From assembly GCA_947561395.2 (NCBI GenBank), contig OX387195.1, positions 3,361,828-3,425,827 on the forward strand: DNA of 64,000 nucleotides, given 5' to 3'. The DNA is from Buxus sempervirens. Lineage: Eukaryota > Streptophyta > Magnoliopsida > Buxales > Buxaceae. Shown piece by piece: positions 15,923-44,565 of the stretch. The position numbers were made by a program, and so were the translations under genes. The notes beneath the pieces are model-generated. The model had not been told where the DNA came from. It did no database searches and saw only the letters and a program-made list of their open reading frames with translations. Within the stretch, counting starts at the first letter, position 1, and each line of letters opens with the position of its first letter.

Positions 15923-17092
15923 ATTGTTTGGATGATTCAGGATTGATTAAATATGCTTACGAGATGCTATTGTATGTGTTAGAATTCATTCAAAGTGATA
16001 AAAGCATGATTTGTAGATTTTATTGTGAAATTCAAAAAATCTGGAAATCTGTGAAAATTTACAAATTTCAAGTAACACCCAACGCGAAACTCAAACATTG
16101 TGTCGAGTGCCCTATTTTCAGTGTATTTGGCCTAGGACGAACGCTCTAGGAAGCGCCCTACCTAAGTTTTTTTTTTAATTTTTTATTTTTTTTAGACGAG
16201 AGTTGAAATTTTTGTATTAAAAGAGCGCCCAATTCGTCGTCCGAACGCCCTAGCGAGTGTTCAAGTTGAAACCCAGAATTAACGACGCCCGATAGTACGC
16301 CCGAACCTTGTTTTAAGCAATTAGAGAGAAGCTGTAGCTTAACTGAGCACCCGAGACTGCTCGAGTGTTGTAGGAAGCGTCCAAGTCAAAATTTTGTATT
16401 TTGAGGTTTTGACCTAGTTTTTCATCCTAAACTTGTTTTTGAGTGATTCCAACTCACGTATCAATTAGTTTAGGGTGTTTTGAAAGTGTCTACGATAGCC
16501 AAAAATTTAATTGGATTTTTATGGTGATTTTTGGGTACGTTTTACTAAATGACTCTTATTTGGGGTTTATCGTTCCAAACTCTTTTCTTTTTTATGAAAC
16601 TTGATTTTGAAGGTTCCTAAACTTGTATTTAGACTATTTAAACATGTTTTGAGCATCAAATGATTTAACTTACACTTGGATCATATTTGACTATTGAGAC
16701 CATGATTTTGACATGTATATGTATCCTCGTATGGGAGTTTTGATTGACAAGTATTTGTTTCCACCCATGTGGGTTTGTTATCATGTATGTGATTTGGCGT
16801 ATGCTTGGATTATTGGTTTCACATATGCTGATTGTTGTGACGTATGTCTCCTACCTAATTTTGCTTTACAACCGTCAAGTGGGCTTAGCTCTTGAATGGA
16901 TCCATAGAGTAGCTTATAAGTGAAATGGTTTTTAGAGCTCGAATTTTATATCATAGGCACTCCGTCATGTTTACGATGGTACCACTCTTGAATTGGTCGA
17001 TTGCTACGTTATCCACTCCGGTATTGGTTAGACCGTACGTGCTAACTCACTTGGGTATCGGTTGAGTACTTCCGTTGGATGTCTAATAGTCA
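15923..17092 (+). mobile_element. LTR fragment (unit 1 copy of the 17587-20239 LTR)
   Basis: This follows the LTR at 10479-15922 and closely matches 18425-19566 over its whole length, including aggattgattaaa, the GC-rich CpG block (16080-16390) and the ggtaccactcttgaattggtcg block (16960-17090). It lacks both LTR ends: the left part was lost and the right end is the tandem-duplication joint at 17092. Confidence 0.7.
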
Positions 17093-27091: not shown

Positions 27092-27100
27092 GAAATCTTC
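27092..27100. repeat. Left 9-bp target site duplication of the Mutator-like element
   Basis: gaaatcttc, identical and in the same orientation to 42423-42431. Nine bases is the Mutator superfamily length. Confidence 0.9.
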
Positions 27101-27325
27101 GCGCTCGAATCCTCTATGAAGCGCATACTCTGTGAAGCAACGCATCGTCTGTGAAGCGCAATCCAACGGACCAAAATAAGCGAAGGGTAGTAGCGTAATT
27201 TTGAACGAAACGCTTAAAAAACTATTAAAATTCTCCTCGGCTTTGTCCTCGGAAATCTCCTCGTCTCAATGAAAACGTGCGAAACATATTATTTAATTTA
27301 GGATCCTCTCCATGTCCGCACCTTA
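27101..27325 (+). repeat. Left terminal inverted repeat of the MULE
   Basis: It matches the reverse complement of 42196-42422. Shared landmarks in order: cctct.tgaagcgcat, ctctgtgaagca, catcgtctgtgaagcg, caatccaacggacca, aataagcgaagg, attaaaattct.ctcgg, gcgaaaca and tccacgtccg-like sequence. The short motif 'tctgtgaagc' recurs three times near the tip on both sides, possible transposase binding sites. Confidence 0.88.
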
Positions 27326-27544
27326 CCCGACATTTCTGGACCTTCTTCGTCTTCGTCATCCTCATCACATACGAAAAGGACAGGATCATACTCCATTTGC
27401 TTCACAGAGACAAACACGCGCGCCCACTTGACGAAAGAAAGGGACCACCACTATCACAAGAACTTCGTAAGCGAGGGACCACCACGACAGCCACCAGCCT
27501 CATTGAAAGACGACTGTAAGCCCTTATTTAATTTTATAATATAA

Positions 27545-28350
27545 TGACCAAATGTATACATAAGGAGCCATGGGTACCAGGCGAAATAAGCCAAAGGTAC
27601 TGCTCCAAATAACGATGGGTACCTGCCGAGTTAAGCTTTAGGTACGCCCGAAGAGCTCCCCAAAAAACATTTTCGTAGTCAACAAATAAACCTATGGTAC
27701 CCTCCAAATAAGCATTAGCTACATCCCCATTTAATTCACAGGCACCCCCAAATAAAGCGTAGGTACCCCCAGTCAAATAACCCATACGTACGCCCCACAA
27801 ATCAGATTAAGGTACCCCACTCTAAGCCCAAGGTACCGCATAAAAGCCTAAGGTACCTCCCATATAAACCTAAGGTACCCCATGGTAAGCCAAACCCACT
27901 CACCAAAATTAACCCAAGGTACCCCCTAAACTTACGGTACCCACAATATAAGCCCAAGGTATCCCCAATATAAGGCTAGGGTACTTCCTGAAATCGTGAT
28001 TCGGCGATTTGTCCTGAGACCTAATCGCTACGAAACAGAGACAATGTTTCACAGCTTACAGTTAATCGCAAATCCGCGATTAGTCGTCTGATTAATTGCG
28101 GCATTTTTGGGGTGTACCTAGAACATTTTTGGGGGGGGGGGGGGGGGGGGATATTTGGGGATACCCAAGGCTTATTTGTGGGGTACGAAAGCCTTATTTT
28201 TTTGGGGGTACCTAAGGCTTAATTGGGTTTTGGTAAGCCAATTTGTAGGTGTAGGTAAACCAATTTAGGGGGCCTATTTGTGGGTACCCAATTCTTATTT
28301 TTGGGGTACAAAATGCATATTTGTGGGGTACGTAAGGCGTATTTCAATTT
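27545..28350. repeat. GGTACC repeat cluster 1 with AATCG-rich core
   Basis: From 27580 to 27990 about twenty units of the form aag(c)ccaaggtacccc occur every 20-35 bp. From 28100 to 28345 the same unit runs in reverse (ggggtacctaaggcttatttg). The two halves face each other across a core (27990-28105) containing attcggcgattt, acctaatcgctacgaaac, gttaatcgcaaatccgcgattag and gattaattgcgg. A 20-base G run lies at 28131-28150. The core matches, inverted, the core of cluster 5. No coding sequence is credible here. Confidence 0.8.
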
Positions 28351-28434
28351 ACATTTTGATTTTATAGATGGCACATGTAAATAATCACATTGGAAAGTTT
28401 TTTTTTATCAATTTGTGTATTTATTTGTAGATAA

Positions 28435-31400
28435 ATGGCACCAAGCGGGGAAGGAGTTCGCAATAGATGTACTCCTCAACGACTGCTAAAAATTATCGAA
28501 AGGTTGAACGAGTCCCAGAGGCTAGCTGTTAGAGAAATTGGGCTGGGAAGCCTTCTTGGTATGACGATTAAACACTGTTATAAGGGCAACATTGTGTCCT
28601 TATTGGCTTCATTTGATCCCGATAAATGTTGCCTTAAAGTAAGTGGAAGGACGTTTGATATATCACCCCTGATGTTGAGCGGATATTGGGGGTGACCTCT
28701 ACCGGGGAGACTATAGAAATCGATGAGGTGGAAAACGACCTCACAGAATTAAAGAAAATGTATTGTGATGATAAGGGTAAGATACCTTTAGGAGAGCTAG
28801 AGAGAAGACTGCAAGAGAAGGAGACGGCGGATGAAGATTTTTTTAGGCTTTTTGTATTGCTTGCATTGGGCTCATTTTTATGCCCTCAAGCTAAGCCGGA
28901 GGCCAACACAAAGTTCTTAAATCTCGTAATAGATATGGAGGGACTCCGTACCCTCAACTGGTCAAAGTTAGTTCTTGATTGGCTCATTGCCGCAATCGGC
29001 CGATACAAGGAGAAGCGCCAAATATATGTCGGTGGTTGTTTGGTTTTTCTAAAGATAAATTATTGTTATACACACATTTCATATATTTGGTATGCTTAAA
29101 TTGTAATGGAGGAAATGTTTACTCAATCGCAGATGTTCTATTATGAATGTTTACGCATGGATGGGACTGCGATAGACTTGGATGCAACAGCTCCTCTCAT
29201 CACTGTGTGGAATGATGAGGATGTGTTGGAGAGGGAGAAAGAAGGAAAGGAAAAGGACATGAAAACTCCGGAACATATTGAATATGAAAATGTTCCGGAG
29301 TCCGATAAATCAAAGGGGAGGAAGAAGGTATATTATATTATATTGTATTTAAATTTTCGAATAGGGGGTACTCAATATCAATATTCATTATACGTACATG
29401 GACATAAATTTTACTTTATTGTGTGTTTTAGCAGGATAAATTGAGGGCAGCGATAAAGAAGCTAACGAAGGTAGTTGCTGCTCTTCAGCGTGAGGTAGCC
29501 GAATCCTCGAGATTGAAGGCTTTGGAGAAGGAGGTAATGGAATTCGGTTTTTGTCATTATTCATTATAAGTTCCAGATCTTATAGAAATGCAAATGTTTG
29601 TGGCTTGATTTGTTTAGGTGGAGAAATTGAAGTTGATGATAAGCAATCTTGAAGTAGGGCAAGCTGAATTAAGAGAGATGGTTCTTGAGCTTGTTGGATA
29701 TGCTCATGACTACCGAAGCTACTCTGCCCCTGAATGTCCACAGGAACCATTTGAGGTTCCAGTGAACGTTGCTTCTACAGCGAAGGGCCCTTTCCCAGTG
29801 TTGCCGATGGAAGATATTGAACTTAGGGCGGAATGTATCCCGGATCCAACAGCGGGAGAATATGAAGGGTCAATCGTTCCATTTCAACCCGTTGAAGCTC
29901 CGAGATTGAAACGAATGAAGGTGCCCGGCAAGGCAAAAAGGAGTCCTTTTACAACCATCACCGAGGAGAAAAAGAAGAGGGCCAGAAAGAGTAAGCAATC
30001 GCTCAATGCTGAGAGGCCAACGCAAACGGTAAGTAGTATATAATTGGATGTCTAATTGCATGTCAACCATTCATGTAAAACTTTACTATAGTAGATTGAA
30101 GAGCAAAATTGTCAATGTAATGATCGTGTGACCTACATGAAATATATTTCAGGTGCCATCTGGCGATGATCAATGTGCGGAGGCTATGTTGTTGCTGGAT
30201 CTGAACATTGCAGATCCGGCCATACAGCCATTGGTATGTTTGTTCTCAGTTTTTCTAAAGGAATTGTTTTATGTTTTTCGGTTAGAATTAGATTGACAGA
30301 CATATATTCATTTTTTGGAATTTTTAATAAACTTGTAGGGAAGCGAACCAGTGGAGGCATCTTCTAGTAGGACTCCGGTGGATGTTGGATGCGCTATCTG
30401 CAACTATGCATTCCGTGAGGACCTCAATCCAGAGTACGTACTTTCGCATATTTATGTTTTATGCGTTATTTCTTTGTAAATTGTTGCGTATGGTTTGACT
30501 GTTTCTTTTGTGGGATATATATGTAGCGAGGTTTTGGTGAGATTCTTCGATATCTTCATTGCCCGTAGTGAGTTTGAGTGTTTGAAGCCTGAGAAATTGG
30601 TTACCAACTAGGTAGCAGTCTAACAACCTAAGTATCTTGTCAGATCGCATAAATATTTGGATTCTTGGATTTTATTTTTTTCTATGTAGATCTTGGATTG
30701 CTACATGCAGATGCTGAATTTCCAGGAACGGCAGGTTGGAGGGCCATGCTACTTCTTCATGTCAGATATTGGGGTAATTACTACGACATTCTTCAAAATC
30801 ATTTGACAATGTCTGTAATACTCCTGTTGAACTTATATTATAACTTTTCAGACTTTTTGCAAGGCAGAAGAAAACCGAAACCTTACCAGACTTAATGATC
30901 AATTTGATCCATCGTACCTACTGAATGTGGTGAACTACAAAATGGTAAGCTTAACTCACCATTGTTGCTGGGATCTTTTAATAGGGTAGGGCTAATAAAT
31001 ATGTTTGTATGCAGTTGTTTTTCCCCATATTGGAGCAAGAACATTGGTACATGTGTGTTGTTGACATGAATAAGAAGAAAGTATTTTTTTTGAACTCGAT
31101 GAAGGTGTGGAGAACCCGCGAAGTTCTCACTGGAGTGGTGAGTGATCAGCGTAATAATTTCTTGTGTCATTAACGTTGTTATTAAGTATCAATTTTTATA
31201 TTTTAGCTAAAAGCAGTAGATATTATATGCACCTGGCAATGGGAAAAGGAAGTTTTAGTAAGCGAATTTCCAAGGACGAAAGCAGAGACTCTTAAGCTTC
31301 CTCGGCAAGACAACCCGTATGTTTTCCACCTATACTTTCTTTTCTATCCTTACTACGATATGATATTAATAGCATCAACTTGTAATCACATCTTTTGTAG

Positions 31401-31660
31401 CCATGACTGTGGAATCTTCGTCATGAAGTTCGCCGCTTACTGGAGAGGAGAACTTTCTCCTCGATTCACGCAGGTACGCTACAACTCCTAACCTATCCAG
31501 TTGTGTTTTCAAAAGCTCCAAATGATCACATTATTAATATAGTTTTGTTATTTTTGAATAGAATGATATTCCGGGCTTCAGAAGAAGCATTGTGAGTGAG
31601 ATGATCCTCCACGAAGAAAACACGGTGAAGGATGATATTGTGAAGAAGAGTTCTACCTAG
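28435..31660 (+). pseudogene. ULP1/SENP-type (C48) SUMO protease-like gene of the MULE, 13 exons, decayed
   Basis: Exons by GT/AG borders and phase: 28435-29054, 29133-29327, 29435-29533, 29618-30028, 30153-30233, 30339-30433, 30527-30611, 30690-30773, 30852-30944, 31015-31137, 31207-31316, 31401-31473, 31562-31660; about 720 residues. The N-terminal part (CTPQRLLKIIERLN, GRTFDIS, DVERILGV) is of the type seen in MULE-borne ULP proteins. A charged coiled-coil-like middle follows. The C-terminal protease has His (HWYMCVVD, 31042), Gln (PRQDN, 31306) and Cys (HDCGIF, 31408), but the expected Asp is Asn (FFLNS, 31093). Lesions: frameshift in the C run at 28666-28669, donor AAG/ATAAAT at 29055 where GTAAAT is expected, and TAG at 30609-30611. 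Exon 3 has a NAGNAG acceptor. ULP1 enzymes cleave SUMO from proteins; this copy is probably inactive. Confidence 0.88.
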
Positions 31661-31994
31661 GGGGAGAGTTCGATGTATTAACATTTTTATATTATACATG
31701 CATCAAACTAAAATTTTAATTTTTGGGGAATCTGTATGTATTTATTTGAGAACAAGGATGTTCCTGTAATGAATGCTGTAGCTGAATCAAGCATTCACTT
31801 GGATTTTACTTTTATGGCATGTTTAGTTTTTTATGATGTTTCACGATCAAATTTTTGTAAAGCATTGTGTACATAGGACATTGTATCCATTGAATAAAAG
31901 CTTGGTTATTTTTATTGCTTAAGTTCTGCCACAGATTCGTCAAACTCATTGTTTGTAAATTACGCCAAATTTTAAAACAAGTTACTATACATTA
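31661..31994. other. 3' flank of the ULP1-like gene
   Basis: AT-rich, no coding frame. AATAAA at 31893-31898 (ttgaataaaagc) is a plausible polyadenylation signal about 230 bp after the stop codon. Confidence 0.5.
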
Positions 31995-32640
31995 GGTACT
32001 CCCCCCAAAACAAAATGAAGGTACGGTTTGTGTGAAGGGTAAGCTAACCAGCACAATGTACCACCCCCACCCCATATAAGCTTAGGTGTCACCTAGTAAA
32101 AGTTTAGTACACACCGAAATAAGGCCAAGGCCCCCACGAAATAATCCTAATTTACATCAGCAAATAAGCCAAAGTACCCCCCCCCAATAAAAACATTGAT
32201 GTGCCGAAAAGTATGATGCGAAATAATGGAAGCGTACCCCTAAGTAATACCCAGGTACCCCCAAAATTAATATTAAGGTAACCCATAAGTAAGCCGGAGG
32301 TACCCCCAAGTAGGAATTGATAATGAACGAAACGCGCGGACGTTAATCATTAACGCCCGCACGTTGCAGCTTTAAAGTGCACAGTACGCGCGAACGTTAC
32401 CAGGAAACATTCGCGCGTTGAATGTGCTCCCACTATTTTGTACATGTGGGTACCTTCGGGTTTCTTGTGGGGTACCTTAAATTTACCTTTGGGGTACCTA
32501 GGTGTTACTTGGAGGTACTCTCCCCTTAATTTGGAGAATTTTTTATGGATAAATTAAGGCTCGTGTGGGGGGTACCCTGGGCTGATTTGGGGGATACGTA
32601 GGCACGTTTGGAAGGGTATCTCAAGATTAATACGTAATAT
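31995..32640. repeat. GGTACC repeat cluster 2 with CGCGCG/ACGTT core
   Basis: Units of type (c)ccaa.taagcc.aggtacccc run from 32000 to 32310. After a core they reverse to ggggtaccttaa..tt (32445-32620). The core (32320-32430) contains acgcgcggacgttaatcattaacgcccgcacgttg, gtacgcgcgaacgtt and cattcgcgcgttgaa, overlapping inverted copies of CGCG(C/A)NACGTT. The same core type recurs in cluster 4. Confidence 0.75.
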
Positions 32641-33157
32641 AAGCTGACTTTTTTTGCATTCCCCCTCTTCCCACAACCTTCGTTGCAGATTTTAATCATT
32701 TCGTATAATACCTTAGTCTTATAGGTGGAAGTTCATTACCATAGGCTAATATAACCAGCACCTTGGACTGGTTGTTTTGCATGTACACGCATTACGACGT
32801 GCTAGACCCAATGTGTGTGTATTGGGGAGATAGAGGAATATGACAAATGAAAGCTAAGACCAAACAATATTTGCTTTGCATGCACTTATCGCATCGTTTT
32901 ACAGGCACATAAGTAAAAAAGATGGTCAAATTAGATGCATTCCATGCTCAAATGACATGAAAAGAGGTTCAAGGCTATGAGGCAGGCCCTGCTGGATCAG
33001 GAACTTTGTGTGCAGGCTCAAGGGATTCAAGCAACAAATGTTCATCTCGAATGTACTCCGCATCACTTGGAGGAATATGCTCTCCAACAACACCTTGAGA
33101 AGCTGCATCGACAACTGTCCTCTGTTCTCCCCTGTCCCTATTCAGCCTGTGAAGCTC
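32641..33157. other. Spacer between repeat cluster 2 and the minus-strand gene
   Basis: No gene seen. It would hold the 3' untranslated region of the minus-strand gene ending at 33158. The overlapping plus-strand open frames at 32977-33259 are low-quality antisense frames. Confidence 0.4.
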
Positions 33158-34695
33158 CTAATTTTCCAATTCAAAGTGCTTCATGGCCCGGCTGTAGTCT
33201 TGTTGCATCTCCCAATATATCTCGTTCAGCCTGATCTGCTTCTCATGCACTGCTTTTAGTGTGTCATCAGCATTCCATACTATTGTCCTCACCCAATTCA
33301 ACTTGGTGTCAATTTGTGCAAACTTCGGCTGAATCAGTTCTCGTACGTCCTCTTTCGTAGAGTAGGTGTCACCTTCTATGTTCTGAAGAAGATGTTCCAT
33401 CTTAGCAACGTGGCGATCAGTTTCATGCTTGTATGCAAGCTGACCATCATACAATTGTTTTATCTGCTGCTTCATCGTCTTCTGGTTCTCAAGAAGTAGT
33501 TTGGTTTGATTCATCAACTCACATTGCATGCCCATAACCTGTGAAAGGATTGATGCGAGTCCACGAGGAAATTGGGAAGAAGTTGTTTGGTCTATAGGAG
33601 CAGCAGCAGGAGCAGGCGCCGATGAGGATGGAATATCGGTTCCACAGGTTGATCATGTGTATCAAGGAGAGGAAGATCATGCTCATGTCCTATAGAAACA
33701 TTGGGGGGAGGAGATGGAGGAGCAAGAGCATCTTCACCAACAGGGGGAGGAGATGGAGGAGCAGGAGCATCTTCACCAGCAGGGGGAGGAGATGGAGAAA
33801 CATGAGCATGGACCCCTGGAACAGGGGGATGGGGTGGAGGAGGAGGATGAGACTTGTTGTATTGCCCCTTGGACTTATTATATGTTGCAGTACTGATAAG
33901 AGAAAGGGGAGCAAGTAACTCATACTCGGGGAAGTCAATTTGATGCATCTTGACTATCTTTGCAATGGCACACCGGAGAGGAAGTCCACACCTATGTTTG
34001 GTATCGAGAAAAGAGTCAAGAATATACGAAATCATGATGCTGGCAACATCAATTGAATGCCTCTTGACCAATGCATAAAGCAAGAGTGCTATCATAGGAG
34101 GCACAGTTGATCTGTGACTCACCGGCGCAAGGTTAAAGCATTGGATTTTGTATATGAATGAGGTGTCAAATGTAAAATGGGAGGACTCCAAAGCTTTGCC
34201 CTCATAGTCACCCTCCCTCTCAGTGGTCAGTAAGCAAGCAACCACTTCATTGAGCAAATGTGGCAAGGAAGCATCAACATACGGGAATTCAGGATTTTCG
34301 ACTCTCGGAATACCTAGGGCCCCAGCGATGGTATCAGAATCTACATGGATGGGCTGCATTCTGAGAGAGGTATTGAAAGATGCGGGACCGTCTGCGATGT
34401 TGTGGATGTTTGAATAGAATTCATATACTAGGTGTTGGGATGGGAGCAGGAAGTTGGTGAAGAGGTTATCCCATCCTCTCCCTGTAAATGCTGCACGAAT
34501 AGACTCGAGGAAGTCTTCTAGAATAACCCCTCTTTCAAGCAAGATTTGTCTGTGGCTGATATTATTCTCATACATCTTCTTGGCCTTCCGATTGATGAAG
34601 ATTGAATTATCAAATGAATCAGTCCTGGGTTTCTTATTGGCTTTCCTGGAGGATGTCTTAGATATAGAAGATGAGGCTCTGGTCTTAGAGGCCAT
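33158..34695 (-). pseudogene. Putative plant transposon protein (PF20167-like) with Pro-rich linker and coiled coil; one frameshift
   Basis: Start ATG at 34695 (MASKTRASSSISKTSS, Ser/Lys-rich). Residues about 45-250 match the plant transposon protein type: GRGWDNLF, LVYEFYSNI, hydrophobic strand, ALGIPRVE, then a helical block with LLLYALVKRHSID. A Pro-rich linker (about 278-345) has tandem PPSPPP.GEDA repeats. Near 33625-33645 a one-base frameshift ends the first frame at 33592. The other frame continues with SSSAPAPAAAPID and a strongly helical, coiled-coil-like tail (MNQTKLLLENQKTMKQQI, to 33158). Full length would be about 510 residues. It is a distant paralogue of the gene at 36094-37275 and transcribed away from it. 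Function unknown. Confidence 0.75.
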
Positions 34696-34850
34696 CTAAG
34701 AGTTCAGAAGAAGAGAGGAAGAAAAATAAATATGCACAAAAAAACACAGAGCAAACGATAATGTTAGACACAGAAAAGATGAGTGCTACCGAATGCAAAT
34801 AATATAAAATGTGAATAATATGAATAATTCTGTGGGAAAAAACCCACTCC

Positions 34851-34857
34851 CTATATA
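34851..34857 (-). promoter_or_regulatory. Possible TATA box of the minus-strand transposon-protein gene
   Basis: TATATAG on the minus strand about 155 bp upstream of the ATG at 34695, followed by an AT/T-rich leader. Position is plausible; no other support. Confidence 0.35.
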
Positions 34858-34879
34858 CATAAAAAAAACCCCAACACTT

Positions 34880-35575
34880 GAGAAAAAAGTGGAGGCGTTA
34901 TTCACGCGTTAGGGAGATAACAATAGGGATGTGTACTTGTCAAAGGCTTATAGGAAAAATGAATAGTAACTTGATTGCAACCGATAATATAAACCATTCC
35001 GACTAAGATAAAGCAAAATGTACCTCTTCAAGACATTAGAATAAACACATAGATCGGAAGCCCTAAATGAACAAATTAATACCCTAATCGTAACATATAA
35101 AATCAAAGCAATAAAGTTCGTAAAGCATCAGTCACACCTTCGAACCAGAAATATAAGCTTTGGAACTCTTCAAGAAGAGAATGAAGTGGTACCCACCCTG
35201 AGAAGACTTTATCGAAATGAAGATGAAGCGCTTCGGATGGCTTTAATTCGCATGGACGAAATAACGCGCCAAACCTGTTTCTTTGTAAATATAGGCAAAC
35301 GCCCGGACGCACGCACCCATAACGTGCACGCATTGATATTAAATATGTGTACAACATAGGGAAGTTTTTAAAGGGTACCTTCGGTTTATGTTTGGGGTAC
35401 CATGGGCAAAAAGTGGGGATACCTCATGCAAAAAAAAGGGGGTACCCAAGCCCAAAGCGAACGTTTGAGCGTTCACGAGAACGTGCACGCATTGATATTA
35501 AATATGTGCAGTACCTAGGGCCTCTTAACTTTTTTAAAGGGTCCCAATGGGTTTTTAAAGGGTCCCTTCGGTTTA
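34880..35575. repeat. GGTACC repeat cluster 3 and direct duplication in the divergent intergenic region
   Basis: This lies between the two divergent genes. Two direct copies of a block beginning aacgtgcacgcattgatatt start near 35324 and 35482, each followed by a 'tttttaaagggt' and 'ccttcggtttatgtt' segment. Between them sit ggggtaccatgggc, ggggatacctcatgc and gggggtacccaagcc units, then gaacgtttgagcgttcacgag, a relative of the CGCGCG/ACGTT core. No credible coding sequence; 34880-35270 is plain AT-rich spacer. Confidence 0.6.
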
Positions 35576-36090
35576 TGTTGTGCACACATGTATGTATATT
35601 TGTATATGTGTGTACACATGATTGTACACATGTGTGTACATGTGTACACATGTACATGTATATATGTGTACATGTGTACACATGTACATGTATATATGTG
35701 TACACATGTACACATGTGGATATGTGCACACATGTGCACATGTGTGTGCACATGATTGAACCCATGTGTGTACATGTGTACACATGTACATATGTGTACA
35801 CATGTGTGTATGTACACATGTGTACATATGTACATGTATATATGTGTACAATAGTACCCATGTGTGTACATGTGTGTACACAAGTACACATGTCGATATG
35901 TGCACACATGTGCACATGTGTGTACATTCGTACACACACATGTACATGTACATACATGTGAACAGATGTACACATGTGTGTACATGTGTACACATGTATG
36001 TACATGTACACGTACAAGAACATATACTTGTGTACATGTACATATACGTATATATACACACACACAAATATATGTCTATATACACACACA
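35576..36090. repeat. ~510-bp imperfect TGTACACATG-type palindromic microsatellite
   Basis: The array mixes TGTACA, ACATGT, TGTGTACACATG and TATATGTG, all near-palindromic, so both strands read alike. It lacks TAA/TAG/TGA triplets, which leaves long open frames on both strands (for example 35424-36101 minus); they encode only Thr-His-Val/Met-Cys repeats and are not genes. The array lies just upstream of the exon at 36094, probably inside its first intron or promoter. Confidence 0.85.
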
Positions 36091-36093
36091 TAG

Positions 36094-37275
36094 GAACCCA
36101 ATCCCTCTCAGTCTACCATCCACAGGGAGCCTTATTCTCCTGATAATTCATCGTCTGCACCTTCTGAAGCCGAGCAGATTCGACAGCGACCCTTGATTGT
36201 TGAGAAACCAGTTGTTAAATCATGTTTAGCACCATATGGTATTGTACAGATTCTGGAAGCTGTTGGTTGGTCCGGCATTCTAGATTGGGGGGATGCTGCC
36301 AACTCCTCGACTGTTGCTCAACTTTACGCCGGATCCCGTAACTTGTCCACCCCTCATTTTTGTGAGCCTGCATTTGAGATCAAAGTGGCAAACTCTACCT
36401 ATACCGTCACACCTGACTTAATAAGTGATCTAATGGGTATACCTAGATCAGAGGTGCGTTTCCTGAACCCACCAACGCAAGAGGAACTTGCTGAGGCCAC
36501 TCAATGTCTGTGTGGGATTGATGCGCCATGGAAAAAGACTGTGCTTCAAGCTAATCAGCTCTTCCCTAGGTATAGAATACTCCATCTCATCTTCACATTC
36601 AATGTCTATCCTAGGTGCAGTAATAAGTTCGAGTTGACCAAGGCCATGGTCTTCCTTCTCTACCTTCTCATTACTCGGACACGCCTTTGTCTGCCCACAT
36701 TCATTTGCAGACATATATGTCAAGTTGTCCATTCATCTGGTCACAGAGCCCTTCCGTTTGCCTATCTTATGACCAGGATTGGGATGAGGTTTGGTTTACA
36801 TGGACCTCCTGAGTCCATGGTTATTTCAAGACAATTTTCACAGATGAATCTAAATCAAATGCAACTTGCACCTTTGCACCACCACTGTCACGTGGCTCAG
36901 AGATCCGGAGAATCAATGGCGCACCAACAGCAGCCACAACAAAGAGAGGAAGCAGAGCTAGCACAACCTTCATCGTCACATCCTCGTCCAGCCATTTCTC
37001 AACCCAGCTCTTTCAAGACATATTCACGACATGGACTGTTGTCAGAAGCCTTTCGTAGGCTTAGCCAAGACGTTGGAGAGATTCAAGAGGATTTTGGTAG
37101 TCTACGACGTGATTTTGGAATGTTTCAGGAATCTATCACTCATGAAGTTGGTGGACTAAAGAAGCTGGTCAAGAAAGCCATGAAGATAGTGACTCATCTC
37201 TTCACTTGCTCCAGTCAGCAGAATCCATCCCTCCCGCCACTTCCCGGGTCTGATGACGATGACATTGCACCGTAG
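36094..37275 (+). CDS. Putative plant transposon protein (PF20167-like), last or main exon
   Basis: Open from the possible acceptor (ATAG at 36090-36093) to TAG at 37273-37275, 393 residues, with no ATG before residue 114, so an upstream exon must supply the start and was not found. A Ser/Pro-rich N-terminus is followed by the plant transposon protein block: ILEAVGWSGILDWGD, VAQLYAGSRNLS, SDLMGIPRSEV, RYRILHLIFTFNVYPR, then LPFAYLMTRIGMRFGL. Next is a Gln/Ser/Pro-rich linker and a coiled coil (about 305-365, with LSQDVGEIQEDFGSLRRDFG), ending acidic (SDDDDIAP). It is not disrupted. It has the same layout as the minus-strand gene at 33158-34695, so the two are likely ancient duplicates. Role in transposition is unknown. 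Confidence 0.75.
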   Translation, partial: EPNPSQSTIHREPYSPDNSSSAPSEAEQIRQRPLIVEKPVVKSCLAPYGIVQILEAVGWSGILDWGDAANSSTVAQLYAGSRNLSTPHFCEPAFEIKVANSTYTVTPDLISDLMGIPRSEVRFLNPPTQEELAEATQCLCGIDAPWKKTVLQANQLFPRYRILHLIFTFNVYPRCSNKFELTKAMVFLLYLLITRTRLCLPTFICRHICQVVHSSGHRALPFAYLMTRIGMRFGLHGPPESMVISRQFSQMNLNQMQLAPLHHHCHVAQRSGESMAHQQQPQQREEAELAQPSSSHPRPAISQPSSFKTYSRHGLLSEAFRRLSQDVGEIQEDFGSLRRDFGMFQESITHEVGGLKKLVKKAMKIVTHLFTCSSQQNPSLPPLPGSDDDDIAP

Positions 37276-37469
37276 TGTGCTGATTTTAGACGTACTTCTA
37301 TGTTTTGGATATAAATGTATTTATCTCAACGCAACTCAAATGTATAGGATATACTCATTTCACATAGTAAAAGTATTCGTAATTACAGCATCATAATCCT
37401 CTGTTGTTTCCATTTGATATAACTTTGTCCATCAATCTACTCTGAATCAGTTCCTTCTTTGAAAAGATG

Positions 37470-37985
37470 ATTGGCGGTGTACCGTAGGCCTCATTTGGGG
37501 GCTACCTAAGGCATCATTGGGGGGATTGCCTGAGGACAAGGGCATAATTACAAGGAACAAAGTGGTACGTTAGGAAGGAAGAATTTGCTTCTAACGCGCG
37601 GACATTAGGAAGCAATGTTCGCGCGTTGAAATCTCAATCACCAATTCGTACTGAAACGTTCGAGCGTTGATATCCCAGGTACGCGCGTCATGCTATTTGT
37701 GCAGAGGGTACCTTGGACTTATTTGTGGGGTGCCTAAAGCATGATTGTGGGTACCTAACACTTAATTGGGGGTACCTAAGGTCTAGATGGGTGGGTTCTT
37801 ATTGTTGTTTGAGGGGATACCTTAACTCTTCAGTTGGGGTATACAAAATATATATATTGGGGGGTTTTGGGAGCCATTATGGGTGGTGCCTAAGGTAGAT
37901 AGGGGGTACCTAAGGGTTGATTTTGGGTGTACTTGTGTTATTAATGGGGGAACCTTATTTTGATTTGGGATGTACTTGCAAGGGA
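37470..37985. repeat. GGTACC repeat cluster 4 with CGCGCG/ACGTT core
   Basis: A few units of type gtaccgtaggcctcatttgg lead to a core (37590-37690) with ctaacgcgcggacatt, caatgttcgcgcgttgaaat, gaaacgttcgagcgttgatat and gtacgcgcgtc. A longer plus-sense run of ggggtacctaagg.tta units follows to 37980. The core mirrors cluster 2 across the centre of the element. Confidence 0.75.
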
Positions 37986-38467
37986 ACAGCAAGAAGCTCT
38001 GAAAATATTAACCAATTAACGGAACTAAATAATTAACGCAAAATTGCGATTCTCATATCACTGGAAGTATACATTTGGTACATACACATCCTTGTACAAT
38101 TAGAAAAAAAAGAACACTTACATTGCACTACAAAAACAATATAATTACAAGACTAACACTGTCATCACATTCAATATACACAATTCACTCCCCTTTTTTT
38201 GTCGTACCAATATACAAAAGAATCACAAATCTCCGGGGAAATGACCTAAATCTCCTTCTTGACGATATAAGCTCCCATCTCCACTATAAACTCCTGGAGA
38301 TCTCCCTACAGTAGAGTTTGAACAGGAGCCAAATTGATTCTGGCCAACAGTATTGCTTAAGTTGGATTCTTGGAATATGTTTGGACTCATTGATTCGTGC
38401 CATTAATGGAATGTCATTGCAAAGCATTGAAATTCTTCACAAAGTATTGAAGAGTATGAGGTAAGTA
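37986..38467. other. 3' flank of the transposase gene
   Basis: AT-rich with no recognisable gene. It contains the likely 3' untranslated region of the minus-strand transposase ending at 38468. Confidence 0.4.
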
Positions 38468-40727
38468 TTATAACATTGCCTCACTCCATCCAGAGCTTTG
38501 ACTTGCATATTGTGTTTGTGGTGGAGTTTGAGTCTCAATTGTATTTGCCGTTTGAGTTGGTATGTCATGGTTCCTCTTCCTCTTTGGAGCCCTTTTTGAA
38601 AAATGTTTTGGTCGATGTCCACTACGACCTCGACCCGGCTTCCTCTTCAGTCCAACAACGGTGATTGGAATATTTTCAGATAAATTCTCTCCTTCATTCC
38701 CATCCACTACGCTCGGAGGCTTGTTCTTCAGCACATTTCCAACTTCGGTCATTAAAATGGCCAGCCCATTCGCAGCACATTCATATGCCTCAAAAGTTTC
38801 GGCAGCAATTGCTGATAATTTAACGGCATTATGGCAAAGTTCTCTGTACCGTTTAACCATGGACAACTTTGCCACTTCCTCATCTGACATACGACTATAA
38901 CTTGGGCTGCAACCCTTTGCATCCTTTGTCCACCGCTTTAATATGTATTGACTTGGGATCTTCTTAATATTTCGTATGTCAAGTATTTTGAGTGCATGGC
39001 TACACAAAATCCCAACAAATTCAAACTTACGGCAACTGCATTTCAACATATCATCCTCAGTGTTAACTGTAACAACATGCCCTTGAGGATTATCAAATAA
39101 GCTAACTTTATAGATTTTTGATGTCTCAGTATGTGAAGTCTCATTAACAACAAGATTCTGAGCTTTTGCATATTCCGATTGAAAAATCTCAAACAGCTTC
39201 GGTGTGTATACCTCCCTTTCATGCTTTAATATGATGATTTCCGCCATCATTCTTGGAATACGCTGGCTCATATTATAATTGTCTTCCTATTCCTTGTAAC
39301 GGATAGCATCCAAAAGCCTTGAAAAATGCTGGAAAAAACACGAGACGTCCATGTTGTACTTCGTGTATTTCTTTAACCGGCTGTTGAAGCTTTCACTCAG
39401 TTGGGTGCTCTTCATGTCAGCACAAAATGTAGTTCTTCCATATACAAGGGCCCATTTCTCCTTTATCTTTAATATACCCTTCAGCCGCTCATTGTCTTGG
39501 AGATCATATTTTTGAATCATTGCATCCCACGCTTCCAAGAACTCAGCCTCTTCCTCGTAATCATATATACACCGATTGAAATCAGATGAAAAGGAGGTTC
39601 TCGTTTGGAATACGTGACCGAGATGCTTCAATGAATTTTGGTGCAAATGCCATACACATAACCGATGATAGGTGTTCGGTAAAACAAAAGCAATTGCAGC
39701 TGACATAGCTGCATCTTGGTCTGTCAAGATGGTAACTAGCTTTTTCCCATTCATTGCCTTTATAAATGTTTCAAACAACCACACAAAGGATGCCTTCGTC
39801 TCATCATAAAGCATTGCGGCTCCGAACACTACCATTCGTTTGTGATGGTTGACTCCAACCAATGGTGCAAATGGCCTTTGAGCTTCGTTTGTCCTATAAG
39901 TTGTATCAAAACAAACGACATCTCCAAAATTATTGTAGTCTTCTTGCATCTTTCGATCAGCCCAGAAAAAGTTTGTTATTTCATTGTTCTCATCAACTTG
40001 TACAACATAAAAGAAAGACGAATCGTCAATCAATTGTCCTTCAAAATAAATTAATAACCGTGATCCGTCTCCTACTTTCATTGCTCTCCGTCTGTCACGC
40101 ATCTGGTTCTTATGTTCAATAGGTAGGAAACCTCTCTCTTCCGCCGGCTTCTCTACCCATGAACTCAAAAGCATGCTTTGGTCGTATGCCACTGCTTTCT
40201 GCTAATACAATTTCTGCTAATTGCGCCTCTGTAACTTTCCTCTGTGAAGGTAGCATGTGGGCCTTACTTGGGGTAACAACCTCATGATTATGCTCCTCCT
40301 CAAAGCTCGAAACAAAATACATGCCATTGTCTTGAGCTTTCACACTCATGTGTGCCAAACAACCCGTACGTGTTTCCTTTCTAGGGTTCTTCACATCTTT
40401 ATCCCGTTTGTCTGTTCCCTTCTTCCCTTTTTTATAGCAACAGAACTTCCTACCCAACTCCTTACCATCTTTCCAACTTTTCCATCTCGTACTCTTTTGA
40501 ATACTGAAGCCCTTCTGTGCTGCATAAGCATTGTAAAATCTATACGCTTCATCGGCAAATGGGAACTCCATTCCCACGGATGGCCTAAAATTTTGAGTAT
40601 GCCCTTCGCCGTCATCGAACCTTAGTGCTCTTACAACTCTAGGCACTGTATTTATATTCGCTATATCATCACTGACCTCATCTCCACTTAATTGCTCACT
40701 TCCACTTGTAGAAATGACTTGCTCCAT
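38468..40727 (-). pseudogene. FAR1-type Mutator transposase, one frameshift and one stop
   Basis: About 753 residues. ATG at 40727 opens an acidic N-terminus, then the FAR1 DNA-binding domain (about 55-150; SVGMEFPFADEAYRFYNAYA, HNHEVVTP). The MULE catalytic domain follows with CFDTTYRTN (Asp near 39907) and TILTDQDAAM (near 39720) and CVWHLHQN. A SWIM zinc finger (CSCRKFEFVGILCSHALK, about 39040) and a basic AT-hook-like tail (KRKPGRGRSGHRP) complete it. A one-base shift occurs in the GA run at 40131-40139 (GGRE then RGFLPIE in another frame). TAG at 39287-39289 follows RYKE and the frame continues EDNYNMSQRIPRM. Such enzymes bind the terminal repeats and cut and rejoin the element. Only two lesions from intact; sequencing error is possible for the frameshift. 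Confidence 0.9.
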
Positions 40728-40789
40728 TTGTCCCTACAACATAAAACAGATATTCCACTTAGAATATCATACTAATAACAATATATAGT

Positions 40790-41885
40790 ACCCATGAACA
40801 TCACAAGGTAACCATTCTCTTCAACCATGTGCCAAGTTGGTGTATTTTGAGGGCTTATTACAAAACTTGATTACGTCGGAATAATTTCTTAGTACCTAGA
40901 CACATGGTACCTACGAATTATTTTTGCGGTACGCCAAGGGTACGAAGGTGGTACATAAGTTTTGAACCTTTTTCATCCCCATAGGTTTGGTTAAAATAAG
41001 ATAGAATATACTGGCAAAAAATAAAGTCAAAAAAAAGACAAAACATGTCAGCGCGATTAGCACAAAGATTAATCGTGAGATCCACGATTAGAATTTTAAG
41101 ACACGGATTTTCCACGATTAGCATCCACGACTAATCGCCTAGTCGAGATTAGGTCTCGCGATTAATCTCAAGATTAATCGCGACCTTCCCGATTAATCTC
41201 AAGATTAATCGTGACCTTCCCGATTAACTTTCCAGAGAACATGAAATCTCCGTTTCATCACGATTAAATCCCAGGATTAATCGGTGCCAGGCGATTTGGG
41301 ATACCTAGGAAAATTTCTTGGGTACCTATGCCTTATTTTGGGGATACCTAACGATTAATTGGGGGTACCTAGGGCATTATTGGCGGTTTTTTGGTGGGTA
41401 CCTACAGGTTCTTATGATGTGTACCTAAGGCTTAATTGTGGTGAACCTCACATTTATTCGGTGGGTACCTAAGGCTTGTTCGGTGGTGGTAATGGCTTAT
41501 TTGACAGCTGTTTATTTCTGGGCGTACCTAAGGTTATTTTGGGGGTGCTTCATTGTTCATTTCGGGGGTACTGAATTCTTATTTGACTAGCCTTTTTGTG
41601 TGGGTAATGAGTGCTAAATGGGGTTACCCAAGGCTTATTTGGGAGGGTTTTTTTTTACAGGTACCTAAGGGTTGTCCTCGGGTGTACCTATGGCTAAATA
41701 TGCGTGTACCTGAAGCTTAACGTGTACCTTAGGCTTAATTGGGGCTACCTACGACTTAAGTACACCCAACCTGTGGCTTACTTCGGTAGGTACCTATTAC
41801 TTAATTGGTTGAATTGTAATTACAAATTTATTATCTCCCTTTACTTCTGAATTTTTTTTAGTACCCCAGGTGTATCATTGAGGAT
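40790..41885. repeat. GGTACC repeat cluster 5 with AATCG-rich core
   Basis: A short left arm (40860-40960) precedes a core (41050-41290) with many GATTAATCGCG / CGATTAG motifs, including two near-identical 'tctcaagattaatcg(c/t)gaccttcccgatta' copies. A long right arm (41300-41880) has about twenty ggggtacctaaggctta units. The reverse complement of 41185-41290 aligns with 27995-28100 (cluster 1 core), including the 'gatgaaacggaga..atgtt' stretch, so inverted similarity extends more than 1 kb inward from the element ends. Confidence 0.8.
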
Positions 41886-42195
41886 ACCACATGGTACCCT
41901 GTCGATGTGTGGCAGCGCGGCGTTGTTCGCCTGACCATCATTTGAATTTATTTAAGGTTCCACCATCTTCGGGGGTTGACATTAATGGAAAAAAGCCAAA
42001 AATCTGTTTATGTACTTAGTTTAGATTGGTTGTTGGAGTCTTAAATAGAAACAAATAATGGTGGAGTGAGTGGTGGTCCCTTCTTCTTTAACACTTGGAA
42101 GTGGAACTGTGGTAGCTGCCTTCCTTTTCTTCGAAGTGAGAGTAAAGACAGCACCTTTCCCGCCAATGTCGGAGTAAACACAGAAATGTCTGAGT
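41886..42195. other. Subterminal spacer of the MULE
   Basis: No gene recognised. It includes a doubled 'tgtc(g/t)gagtaaacacagaa' motif at about 42168-42210, next to the inner edge of the right terminal repeat. Confidence 0.4.
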
Positions 42196-42422
42196 AAACA
42201 CAGAGAAAGTTCGGACGTGGACAAGATTATAAGTTAAATAATATAAATGTTTCGCGCATTTTCGTCTTGCCGAGGAGAGAGCCGAGTAGAATTTTAATAC
42301 TTTTTTAAGTATTGCACTCAAAATTACTATTATAGCCTTCGCTTATTCTGGTCCGTTGGATTGCGCTTCACAGACGATGTTTTTGCTTCACAGAGGATGC
42401 GCTTCACAGAGGATCCGCGAGC
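42196..42422 (-). repeat. Right terminal inverted repeat of the MULE
   Basis: Reverse complement of the left repeat at 27101-27325, with the same ordered motifs and three gcttcacag repeats at the tip. The outermost 14 bases differ from the left tip at several positions; the next 200 align well. Confidence 0.88.
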
Positions 42423-42431
42423 GAAATCTTC
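42423..42431. repeat. Right 9-bp target site duplication of the MULE
   Basis: gaaatcttc, identical to 27092-27100. Confidence 0.9.
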
Positions 42432-42746: not shown

Positions 42747-44489
42747 CTATTCATATCCTCCTCCACCAGATTTACTTTCACTTCCACTATCACCACCTTT
42801 GTCACCTTTAGTTTTTACACTAACACCGCTGGTAGTACCACCCGAACTAGATCCAGCAATAGATCCTCCCACACCACCACCACTGGATGCTCCTCCGTTG
42901 AATTTACTATCACTTCCACTGCTACCTGCCTTGTCACCTTTAATTTCTACACGACCTTCAGTACCCGAATTATAGCCAGCAGCAGATCCTCCCACACCAC
43001 CACCACCACTATATCCTCCTCCATTGGATTTACCTTCACTTCTACTACCACCATCTTTGTCACCTTTAGTTTCTACACTAACACCACCACCCGAACTAGA
43101 GCCACCAACAGATCCTCCCAGACCACCACCACTGGATGCTCCTTTGCTTGATTTACTGTCACTTCCACTGCTACCTTCAGTACTCGAACTATAGCCACCA
43201 GCAGATCCTCCCACACCGCCACTACCACCGGATTCTCCTCCGCTGGATTTATCTTCACTTCCACCACTACCTTCCTTGTCACCTTTAATTTCTACACTAC
43301 CTTTAGTAACTGAACTGCCACCAGCAGATCCTCCAACACCGCCACTAACACCGCCGGATCCTCCTCCACTGGATTTTCCTTCACTTCCACTGCCACCGCC
43401 TTTGTCTCCTTTAATATCTACACTACCTTTAACACCACTAGTATCAGTATCTGCACCATAGCCACCACCAATAGATCCTCCTCCTGCAGCACCACCACCA
43501 TTTCCATTTCCTGAAGCGCCACCTTTCAGGCCTACGTCAGCATTACCACTAGCACCACCACCTACATTACCACCACCAAAAATTCCTTTGCCACCACTAA
43601 AGATTCCTTTTCCCCAGACATCCTTGAATCTACCTTCTTTTCCTGCATCAGCACCAGTACTACCTCCACTACCAAATTCTCCCTTAGCACCACCATTAAT
43701 CCCACCAGTACCCCCAAATTCTCCACTACCACTTCCACCATTTCCTCCACCACCTTGAATACTAATGCTTCCACTAATACCTCCACCATGTGGAGTACCA
43801 ACGCCTTTCTCTATTCGGAAACCTTTACTACCTCCTCCACTGGCACTGTCGCTGCCTTTCTCTGTTCCGTAGCCTTTAGAAAAAACACCACTAGCACCTC
43901 CACCACCACTTCTGAGGCCTCCACCACCTAGACCACCACCAGTTCCAAAAACTCCACCATGATGAAAGCCACCCGTGCCCAGGCCTCCGCCACCTACTTT
44001 ACCACCAAACCCAAGGTCACCACCACCGAGGCTTCCAACACCTAGACCACCACTATCACCGAGACCTCCACTCTTATGAAAGACACCAGAACCCAGACCT
44101 CCACCACCTTCTTTACCACCAACACCTAGGCCTCCACCACCTAGAACACCACCAGAACCGAGACCTCCACCATGATGAAAGCCACCAGCACCGAGGCCTC
44201 CACCACCTAGACCACCACCACCAAGACCTCCACCATGATGAAAGCCACCAGCACCGAGGCCTCCACCACCAAAACCTCCACCGAGGCCTCCACCACCTAG
44301 ACCACCACCATGATGAAAGCCATGATGGAGACCACCTAAACCACCTCCAGCAAGACCACCCGCAGCACCCCCATAAATGTCTTTCAGAATTTGAGTCATT
44401 TGACGATGCCCTTCTGCCGTTCCTATCATCACCGTCACCATGATAAATGTTATTCTAAATACTTCTATATTCTTAAACAAATTCCCCAT
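42747..44489 (-). CDS. Secreted glycine-rich (cell-wall-type) protein, 580 residues
   Basis: Uninterrupted frame from ATG 44489 to the stop at 42747. A short N-terminus is followed by a hydrophobic signal-like segment (FRITFIMVTVMIGTAEG, about residues 11-27). Residues about 40-170 are GGGLGGGGLGG.GFHHGGG repeats with paired histidines, and a central Gly/Ser region follows. The C-terminal half has about five repeats of a 40-50-residue unit containing IKGDK.G.SGSE.KS.GG.SGG.GGVGGSAGG. Such proteins are structural cell-wall components in plants. It is the only ordinary-looking host gene here. A TATA box at 44566-44575 suits the start. The MULE's right end lies 325 bp beyond its stop codon, so the insertion may affect its 3' end. 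Antisense open frames here are shadows of the repeats. Confidence 0.8.
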   Translation of the reverse strand: MGNLFKNIEVFRITFIMVTVMIGTAEGHRQMTQILKDIYGGAAGGLAGGGLGGLHHGFHHGGGLGGGGLGGGFGGGGLGAGGFHHGGGLGGGGLGGGGLGAGGFHHGGGLGSGGVLGGGGLGVGGKEGGGGLGSGVFHKSGGLGDSGGLGVGSLGGGDLGFGGKVGGGGLGTGGFHHGGVFGTGGGLGGGGLRSGGGGASGVFSKGYGTEKGSDSASGGGSKGFRIEKGVGTPHGGGISGSISIQGGGGNGGSGSGEFGGTGGINGGAKGEFGSGGSTGADAGKEGRFKDVWGKGIFSGGKGIFGGGNVGGGASGNADVGLKGGASGNGNGGGAAGGGSIGGGYGADTDTSGVKGSVDIKGDKGGGSGSEGKSSGGGSGGVSGGVGGSAGGSSVTKGSVEIKGDKEGSGGSEDKSSGGESGGSGGVGGSAGGYSSSTEGSSGSDSKSSKGASSGGGLGGSVGGSSSGGGVSVETKGDKDGGSRSEGKSNGGGYSGGGGVGGSAAGYNSGTEGRVEIKGDKAGSSGSDSKFNGGASSGGGVGGSIAGSSSGGTTSGVSVKTKGDKGGDSGSESKSGGGGYE

Positions 44490-44565
44490 TTTTCTTTCAA
44501 TAAAAGGACAAACAAAGCGTGGAATATGATTTCGTAAACTTTAATAACAGAGTCAGGTGAAGAAG

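What the first reader, a model, noticed from the sequence alone, without database searches (positions are those of the whole stretch)
27092..42431. A 15.3-kb Mutator element with four genes, defined to the base
Perfect 9-bp duplications gaaatcttc flank inverted repeats of about 220 bp that enclose ULP1-like, two transposon-protein-like and transposase genes. MULEs with transposase plus ULP (Kaonashi type) are known. One with two additional genes of the 'putative plant transposon protein' class, all inside verified ends, would be a larger and possibly undescribed architecture.
Basis: partly seen in the sequence, partly recalled or inferred. Interest (0 to 1): 0.9.

Follow-up and report, generated by a model that had tools for sequence, protein, structure and literature searches.

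The report
Four-gene jumping element with phased arrays
This is a shortened, damaged copy of a large plant jumping element whose transposase and two middle genes recur in the same order at 70 places in the genome, and whose non-gene DNA carries a short motif repeated about every 22 bases that likely helps the element's own proteins escape the plant's silencing.

Summary
A 15,322-bp TIR Mutator-like element lies at 27101-42422 between perfect 9-bp duplications (GAAATCTTC). It carries a DUF1985/PMD-like Ulp1 gene, two PF20167 genes and a FAR1/MULE/SWIM transposase. The two middle genes are not later insertions: of 118 listed transposase matches of this family in the same genome, 70 have both genes within 30 kb, in the expected order in 70 of 70. 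The window copy is not the whole element: all four genes are damaged, and 2.7-5.5 kb between the middle genes is missing compared with five other copies. A recent copy is 20,805 bp with its own 9-bp duplication.
A related family (54% identical transposase, one PF20167 gene, Ulp1 remnant, own duplication) lacks this motif and has another 22-bp unit, 33 times. Family-specific, phased motif arrays in noncoding DNA beside a DUF1985-like/Ulp1 gene resemble the VANC anti-silencing systems of Arabidopsis VANDAL elements, here in a FAR1/Jittery-class TIR element. Anti-silencing is inferred, not shown. A new variant of a known kind.

The parts
27092..27100 (.). left 9-bp target-site duplication GAAATCTTC
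42423..42431 (.). right 9-bp target-site duplication GAAATCTTC
27101..27324 (+). left terminal inverted repeat
   Evidence: 77.6% to the right end over 232 columns; 409 genome candidates, 40 scored, up to 97% besides itself
42206..42422 (-). right terminal inverted repeat
27570..28344 (.). array block A: reverse GGTACC units, centre with CGATTA motifs, forward units
28435..31660 (+). ULP gene, 13 exons placed by hand: DUF1985/PMD-like N-terminal part (below Pfam cut-off), coiled-coil-like middle (by eye), Ulp1 peptidase C48; frame broken near 28668
32100..32610 (.). array block B: reverse GGTACC units, ACGCGCG-type inverted centre, forward units
32981..34695 (-). PTP1: PF20167 domain, 13-aa Pro-rich repeats, C-terminal part; frame broken near 33643, one stop
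35321..36087 (.). remnant of the central array block; TGTACA tract 35587-36041; deletion junction at 36011/36088 relative to other copies
36082..37275 (+). PTP2: PF20167 domain; first 34 codons and upstream DNA absent, a stop at the truncated start, open frame 36094-37275
37480..37970 (.). array block C: ACGCGCG-type centre, mostly forward GGTACC units
38468..40733 (-). transposase: FAR1 DNA-binding, MULE, SWIM domains; frame broken near 40134-40141
40890..41820 (.). array block D: CGATTAATC-type centre, mostly forward GGTACC units

Best explanation
The window holds an internally deleted copy of a FAR1/Jittery-class, long-TIR Mutator-like element that carries a transposase, a DUF1985/PMD-like Ulp1 gene, two PF20167 genes and motif arrays phased at about 22 bp between its genes, and it likely works as a self-mobilising element that shields its own copies from silencing by letting one of its own proteins bind those arrays. 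Shown: ends, 9-bp duplications, gene content and order, family copy number, arrays kept out of genes, phasing, and a related family with another motif. Inferred: the transposase would bind the TIRs and move the element by cut-and-paste. The DUF1985/PMD-like Ulp1 protein is the leading candidate for array binding, as in KIU-type VANC proteins. The two PF20167 proteins would be partners or rival readers of the array; PTP1 shows the highest amino-acid divergence of the four (dN to i1 0.046-0.066, against ULP 0.044-0.054) and carries tandem peptide repeats, as VANC proteins do. Bound arrays would strip DNA methylation from all copies bearing the motif, in trans as well.
For: Replicated architecture: 70 of 118 listed family transposase matches have PTP2 and PTP1 (70 distinct pairs), order kept in 70 of 70; 58 of the 70 have PTP1 within 15 kb and PTP2 within 5 kb. 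ULP exons in 8 of 8 copies examined. Recent copy i1: 20,805 bp, duplication CTTTCTGTT. Array statistics in i1: GGTACC 83 observed against 4.64 in shuffles (largest 11), 82 outside the four gene spans; TGTACA 86 against 8.93; ACGCGCG type 37 against 0.49. Spacing of GGTAC/GTACC cores: 52 of 64 nearest-neighbour steps of up to 30 bp are 20-23; 0 of 200 jittered controls reach the observed phasing. Related family s1: own duplication CACTAATTG, FAR1/MULE/SWIM transposase and PF20167 protein E 8.3e-24, a weak Ulp1-like match, a different 22-bp unit x33, its motif absent from 12 of 12 family-A stretches, and the only GGTACC of its 24-kb stretch outside the element. VANC parallels: DUF1985 in VANC, motif arrays in noncoding DNA diverging by tandem repeats, tandem peptide motifs (PMC5735166 passages); VANC with Ulp1 (PMC13317346 passages). 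PTP1 dN.
Against: DUF1985 and PMD matches are below Pfam's cut-offs (22.6/35.1 and 24.6/34.9 bits), and in i1's first exon only DUF1985 at E 0.023. The position of the Ulp1 acid residue (placed by eye, recalled) reads Asn in 8 of 8 copies, and the Cys reads Tyr in c8, so protease activity is uncertain. VANC21 motifs are arrayed in one orientation; here units are degenerate and mirrored around hairpin centres. The best-fit period in i1 is 20.2 bp although the commonest step is 22, so 'two helical turns' is approximate. PTP1's raised dN/dS (1.42 on fixed differences) is not significant (against ULP p 0.057, against transposase p 0.20). No binding, methylation or expression data. i1's ULP has a stop codon. 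Only one element of the second family was read in full.
Confidence: 0.45

Rival explanations
1. The arrays are transposase-binding sites: extended subterminal repeats read by the FAR1 domain, needed for synapsis and cutting rather than for anti-silencing.
For: Two of the blocks are subterminal (27570-28344 and 40890-41820); the transposase has a FAR1 DNA-binding domain; subterminal repeat binding is recalled for CACTA and Ac transposases.
Against: The largest block, 57 of 83 GGTACC cores, lies 7.8-14.5 kb from the left end between the two PF20167 genes. The motif differs fully between two families whose transposases are 54% identical.
Confidence: 0.2
2. The arrays are by-products without function: palindrome-prone intergenic DNA that grows by slippage and recombination, or hairpin/terminator-like spacers between convergent genes.
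For: Central block varies from 1.4 to 6.9 kb among six copies (the 6.9 kb of c6 include an insertion of about 1.8 kb); palindromic ACGCGCG centres and inverted modules of 1.4 kb at 94.8%; the TGTACA tract is near-simple sequence.
Against: GGTACC cores are nearly absent from the four gene spans (1 of 83) but present in all five noncoding blocks of i1; phasing holds in degenerate units and again at 22 bp in another family with unrelated sequence.
Confidence: 0.25
3. PTP1 and PTP2 are passengers: captured Athila ORF1-like genes or separate insertions, without a role.
For: PF20167 is also found in an Athila aORF (PMC11728184 passages); 26 of 118 transposase matches show PTP2 without PTP1, 5 PTP1 only and 17 neither, though lists were capped.
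Against: Order and strands kept in 70 of 70; by my count 18 PTP1 matches with an open 614-aa frame and 29 PTP2 matches with an open 508-aa frame; a PF20167 gene also sits in the related family.
Confidence: 0.1

Closest known systems
Jittery-like MULEs of grapevine and melon with ULP (PMC2528002, passages read)
   Same: Jittery-class transposase with a ULP sequence in some families; large multi-copy elements (Jitvine-1 11.9 kb, Jitvine-2 14.4 kb)
   Different: No TIR listed for Jitvine-1 and -2; which of them bears ULP is in a figure I did not see; no PF20167 genes or phased arrays in the passages read
VANDAL21 and relatives with VANC (PMC5735166 passages; PMC10398659 abstract)
   Same: Extra DUF1985-type protein; short motif accumulated as repeats in noncoding DNA; motif differs between families; variable tandem peptide region
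   Different: VANDALs are said to lack TIRs or have short degenerate ones (the survey table gives 46-174 bp for some) and form another transposase group (PMC6446971 passages); here mirrored GGTACC units, PF20167 proteins, FAR1 transposase
KI-MULEs / Kaonashi (KIU), described in PMC13317346 passages
   Same: Ulp1 domain in a MULE; KIU-type VANC reported to drive hypomethylation of motif-bearing relatives
   Different: Non-TIR; Kaonashi is one of three genes there; PF20167 not mentioned in the passages
Jittery group of MULEs in the survey PMC6446971 (table passage)
   Same: FAR1 N-terminal, SWIM or CCHC, TIR 39-292 bp
   Different: Listed there with one ORF; 8-bp or unstated duplication against 9 bp here
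Athila aORF with PF20167 (PMC11728184 passages)
   Same: Same Pfam family of accessory protein, predicted nuclear there
   Different: LTR retrotransposon, not a DNA element

Membership tests
Mutator-like element (MULE) | MULE-type DDE transposase | tested here: met
   PF10551 E 3.4e-27
Mutator-like element (MULE) | about 9-bp target-site duplications | tested here: met
   window, i1, c7 and s1 have one; c3 has none found: 4 of 5 elements with both ends read; s2, whose ends are uncertain, is not counted
FAR1/Jittery group | FAR1 N-terminal domain with SWIM | tested here: met
   PF03101 E 7.8e-26, PF04434 E 7.4e-7; no tree was built
FAR1/Jittery group | single ORF, as listed in the survey | tested here: not met
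   three further genes
KI-MULE / Kaonashi | Ulp1 domain gene | tested here: met
   PF02902 E 7.1e-16, 59.1 bits against cut-off 20.7
KI-MULE / Kaonashi | no long TIR | tested here: not met
   about 220-bp TIRs
VANC-type anti-silencing system | DUF1985 domain protein | tested here: inconclusive
   E 1.2e-4, below cut-off
VANC-type anti-silencing system | dense short motif in noncoding DNA of the family, rare in genes | tested here: met
   82 of 83 GGTACC outside the four gene spans of i1
VANC-type anti-silencing system | motifs arrayed in one orientation | tested here: not met
   mirrored orientation in this family; one orientation, 33 of 33, in s1
VANC-type anti-silencing system | different motif in related families | tested here: met
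   two families compared, one element read of the second
VANC-type anti-silencing system | protein binds motif and removes DNA methylation | not testable with these tools
   no binding or methylation data here
Pack-MULE | host gene fragments without transposase | tested here: not met
   transposase present

The most novel reading that the evidence does not exclude
FAR1/Jittery-class TIR elements evolved their own sequence-specific anti-silencing systems, apart from VANDAL: a DUF1985/PMD-like Ulp1 protein together with one or two PF20167 proteins reads a family-specific motif phased at about 22 bp (roughly two helical turns), so that two such families in one genome each protect only themselves. 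PF20167, a label without a stated function in the papers I saw, would be a DNA-reading, counter-silencing protein family shared by DNA transposons and Athila retrotransposons.
Probability: 0.3. Interest if true: 0.82.

Novelty: new variant of a known kind. Interest (0 to 1): 0.62.

Why it matters
In the search listings I saw, plant transposons that fight silencing in a sequence-specific way are those of the VANDAL group (12 of 563, 15 of 85 and 12 of 338 papers listed). A second class, with long TIRs, different accessory proteins and motif arrays that differ completely between two families of one genome, would show that this strategy arose more widely and would give a function to PF20167. The genome lists 32 open 756-codon transposase frames of this family, so binding and methylation tests are possible at once.

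Tried and rejected
Separate insertions of the middle genes: rejected by 70 of 70 conserved order and by copies colinear through both genes. The 15.3-kb form as ancestral: rejected; the PTP1-PTP2 gap of 1,399 bp is the smallest of 70, and five other copies with both genes have 4.1-6.9 kb of mostly array DNA there. Protein database for PTP1: 7,992 candidates scored, none at E 0.001 or better. AlphaFold2 on the PTP1 domain: mean pLDDT 35.6, discarded, no fold search made. Solved structures: no meaningful match for PTP1, for the ULP N-terminal part or for the two-sequence profile. Positive selection on PTP1: ratio above 1 but not significant; post-insertion decay and tandem repeats blur it. PTP2 fixed differences are too few (13 and 3). 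Element s2 (C22:22237131-22261130): 60% transposase, 148-bp inverted repeats at 99% but no duplication found, GGTACC-type 22-bp array just outside them; left as inconclusive. Not obtained because the search machine did not answer: the genome count of the ULP gene, the right-TIR search, and the s1 transposase search that would show whether s1-type arrays lie in s1-type elements. A genome count of GGTACC arrays was planned but never asked for.

The statement that VANC motif specificity depends on helical periodicity is recalled from the abstract of Sasaki et al. 2022 (EMBO J; title seen only in a reference list; paper not held) and comes from no call. A search for the phrase with VANC terms listed 12 of 338 papers, none of the 12 holding it, and PMC10398659 does not hold it.
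Full report
1. The observation. GAAATCTTC occurs twice in the 64-kb window, both on the plus strand at 27092-27100 and 42423-42431, and abuts the termini GCGCTCGAATCC and GGATCCGCGAGC. The element is 27101-42422, 15,322 bp. The inverted repeats match at 77.6% over 232 columns.

2. Genes in the window. ULP gene on plus, 28435-31660, 13 exons placed by hand from GT-AG sites and found again in other copies. Its C-terminal part matches Peptidase_C48 (Ulp1) at E 7.1e-16, above the cut-off. Its N-terminal part matches PMD (E 1.5e-5) and DUF1985 (E 2.0e-4), both below the cut-offs. Triad positions are placed by eye from recall: the Asp position reads Asn in 8 of 8 copies, His and Gln are kept in 8 of 8, Cys in 7 of 8 (Tyr in c8). 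PTP1 on minus, 34695-32981, PF20167 E 3.7e-17. PTP2 on plus, 36082-37275, PF20167 E 6.9e-13. Transposase on minus, 40733-38468: FAR1 E 7.8e-26, MULE E 3.4e-27, SWIM E 7.4e-7. Compared with a recent copy the window's transposase, PTP1 and ULP are frameshifted and PTP2 lacks its first 34 codons.

3. Other copies. The genome is held (676.5 Mb, 247 contigs). The left TIR has 409 candidates, of which 40 were scored, up to 97% identical besides itself. I fetched 20 kb at 10 of these 40, the ten best after the window itself. Of the 10, four (c3, c6, c8, c9) carry ULP, PTP1, PTP2 and at least part of the transposase colinearly, their main segments 93-98% identical; c7 is internally deleted from 29998 to 36388; the other five are broken or run out of the stretch. 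c3 is complete at 18.6 kb but shows no duplication; c7 has AAAGTAAAG. Dissimilar flanks are reported for one citrus FAR1-MULE copy and another insertion (PMC4334395 passages). A further, recent copy i1 (C10:7559610-7583609) is 20,805 bp with duplication CTTTCTGTT and termini GCGCGCGGATCC/GGATCCGCGCGC. Its transposase (756-codon frame), PTP1 (614 aa) and PTP2 (431 aa from the first ATG of its frame) are open; its ULP has one stop.

4. Family size and linkage. The transposase search listed 131 rows (130 of 1,036 candidates scored); by my count 32 have an uninterrupted 756-codon frame, and 13 share one E-value and score, a sign of recent spread. PTP1: 111 rows used, weaker second pieces of the same genes left out, 18 with a 614-aa frame and no stop by my count (111 of 3,731 candidates scored, listing cut). 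PTP2: 106 rows (105 of 1,386 candidates scored), 29 with a 508-aa frame and no stop by my count. Of 118 transposase rows at 70% identity or more (two of them pieces of one gene), 75 have PTP1 on the expected strand and side within 30 kb; 3 have one on a wrong strand or side. With PTP2 (within 25 kb) added: 70 have both, 26 PTP2 only, 5 PTP1 only, 17 neither; order transposase-PTP2-PTP1 in 70 of 70. The 70 use 70 distinct PTP1 and 70 distinct PTP2 rows on 14 contigs; 58 lie within the tighter limits of 15 and 5 kb. Of 13 transposase rows below 70%, none has a listed PTP1 or PTP2 row nearby; as s1 is one of them and does have a divergent PF20167 gene, the lists miss divergent genes. ULP was not counted genome-wide; its exons were found in 8 of 8 copies examined, c1, c5, c7 and c10 not being included. 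The lists were capped, so absences are weak evidence.

5. The window copy is deleted. The PTP1-PTP2 gap is 1,399 bp in the window, the smallest of 70; 49 of 70 lie between 6.2 and 8.3 kb. In six copies the central block is 1.4 kb (window), 4.1 (c3), 6.9 (c6, including an insertion of about 1.8 kb), 6.4 (c8), 5.6 (c9) and 6.8 kb (i1), with 4, 23, 30, 35, 30 and 57 GGTACC cores. The window junction is at 36011/36088.

6. The arrays. Noncoding blocks A-D and the centre consist of degenerate units around GGTACC (for example TTTGGGGGTACCTAAGGCTTA), largely in reverse orientation on one side and forward on the other of a hairpin-like centre: CGATTAATC motifs in the outer blocks, ACGCGCGGACGTT-type in the inner ones. 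In i1 GGTACC occurs 83 times (4.64 in dinucleotide shuffles), 82 outside the four gene spans; TGTACA 86 (8.93), ACGCGCG type 37 (0.49), GATTAATC 7 (0.46). The 48.7 kb of window outside the element have 6 GGTACC. For GGTAC/GTACC cores in i1, 52 of 64 nearest-neighbour steps of up to 30 bp are 20-23 bp, the commonest 22; the best-fit period over all pairs is 20.2 bp; jittering the cores by up to 11 bp did not reach the observed phasing in any of 200 trials.

7. A related family with another motif. A transposase at 54% identity (C14:21644387) lies in s1, a 12,607-bp element with TIRs and duplication CACTAATTG. It encodes a FAR1/MULE/SWIM transposase on minus and one PF20167 protein on plus (E 8.3e-24), closest to PTP1 (33% over 274 columns, E 6e-41) rather than PTP2 (26% over 208 columns). 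To its left is a short Ulp1-like match, E 0.018. There is one GGTACC in the 24-kb stretch, outside the element, but 33 copies of a 22-bp unit ACAAGTCCAACCTACCCTACTT in one orientation, and 4.4 copies of a 72-bp unit. Of 33 steps of up to 30 bp between its cores 28 are exactly 22 bp. The s1 motif is absent from 12 of 12 stretches of the first family. Genome-wide the 17-mer of this unit occurs 1,237 times, its reversed control 0 times; of the 100 places listed, 99 are on contig C1 and fall in five clusters. Whether those clusters lie in s1-type elements was not tested.

8. Mechanism. In Arabidopsis, VANC proteins with DUF1985 and DUF287 bind a short motif that has accumulated as repeats in the noncoding DNA of their own VANDAL family, and cause loss of methylation there; motifs differ between families, and VANC proteins have variable regions with tandem peptide motifs (PMC5735166, passages read). 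VANCs with Ulp1 (KIU) are reported to do the same (PMC13317346, passages). The present family has most of these features in a different chassis, plus two PF20167 proteins; the mirrored orientation of its units is a difference. The similar period with unrelated sequence in two families suggests a protein array on one face of the helix (inference). On this basis I judge element-encoded anti-silencing the likeliest use of the arrays. PTP1 differs between i1 and the older copies at 49 nonsynonymous and 11 synonymous fixed sites (ratio 1.42), ULP 56 and 28 (0.56), transposase 12 and 6 (0.54, from at most four older copies), PTP2 13 and 3 (1.40); PTP1 against ULP p 0.057, against transposase p 0.20, so this is a hint only.

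9. What is known. ULP in Jittery-like MULEs: grapevine and melon (PMC2528002 passages). The MULE survey lists the plant Jittery group with one ORF (PMC6446971 table passage). PF20167 in print: 6 papers hold one of the three terms searched, one of them for an Athila aORF (search listing; PMC11728184 passages). In the listings of searches (20 of 429; 6 of 6; 12 of 12) of the held open library I saw no paper with PF20167 in a MULE or with motif arrays in FAR1-class MULEs. Most subscription papers are not in that library: Sasaki 2022 is not held, and van Leeuwen 2007 I did not look up.

10. Verdict. The architecture is real, recurrent and larger than the window shows. The four-gene set is a new variant of the ULP-bearing Jittery-class MULEs, and the arrays make a VANC-like anti-silencing role the best, still untested, explanation.

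Noticed in passing
window 24604-25263, 46958-47785, 62694-63425: Open frames with hAT-like RNase-H (E 1.6e-8), RVT_3/RNase H (E 2.5e-22) and Integrase_H2C2 (E 1.4e-16) domains: the surroundings are rich in transposable elements.
   Followed up: partly
window 42747-44540, minus: A 597-aa glycine-rich open frame without any Pfam match (E 0.01 or better) begins about 320 bp from the right duplication; possibly a host gene next to the insertion.
   Followed up: no
window 61366-61737: A 372-bp stretch that is its own inverted repeat at 87%.
   Followed up: no
window 15924-17089 and 18429-19584: Direct repeat of about 1.2 kb at 84.6% with further related pieces nearby.
   Followed up: no
C14:40612207-40632206 (L013, L014): Copy c3 has both ends and all four genes but no 9-bp duplication, as if its ends were inserted at different targets or exchanged between copies.
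   Followed up: partly
C22:22237131-22261130 (L035-L037), 16650-16908 of the joined stretch: A GGTACC-type 22-bp array next to a 60% identical, 832-aa FAR1 transposase flanked by 148-bp inverted repeats without a duplication: either a third family or an insertion beside an older array.
   Followed up: partly
s1, 13203-13519 of joined L032-L034: A 72-bp unit in 4.4 copies beside the 22-bp array, of unknown meaning.
   Followed up: no
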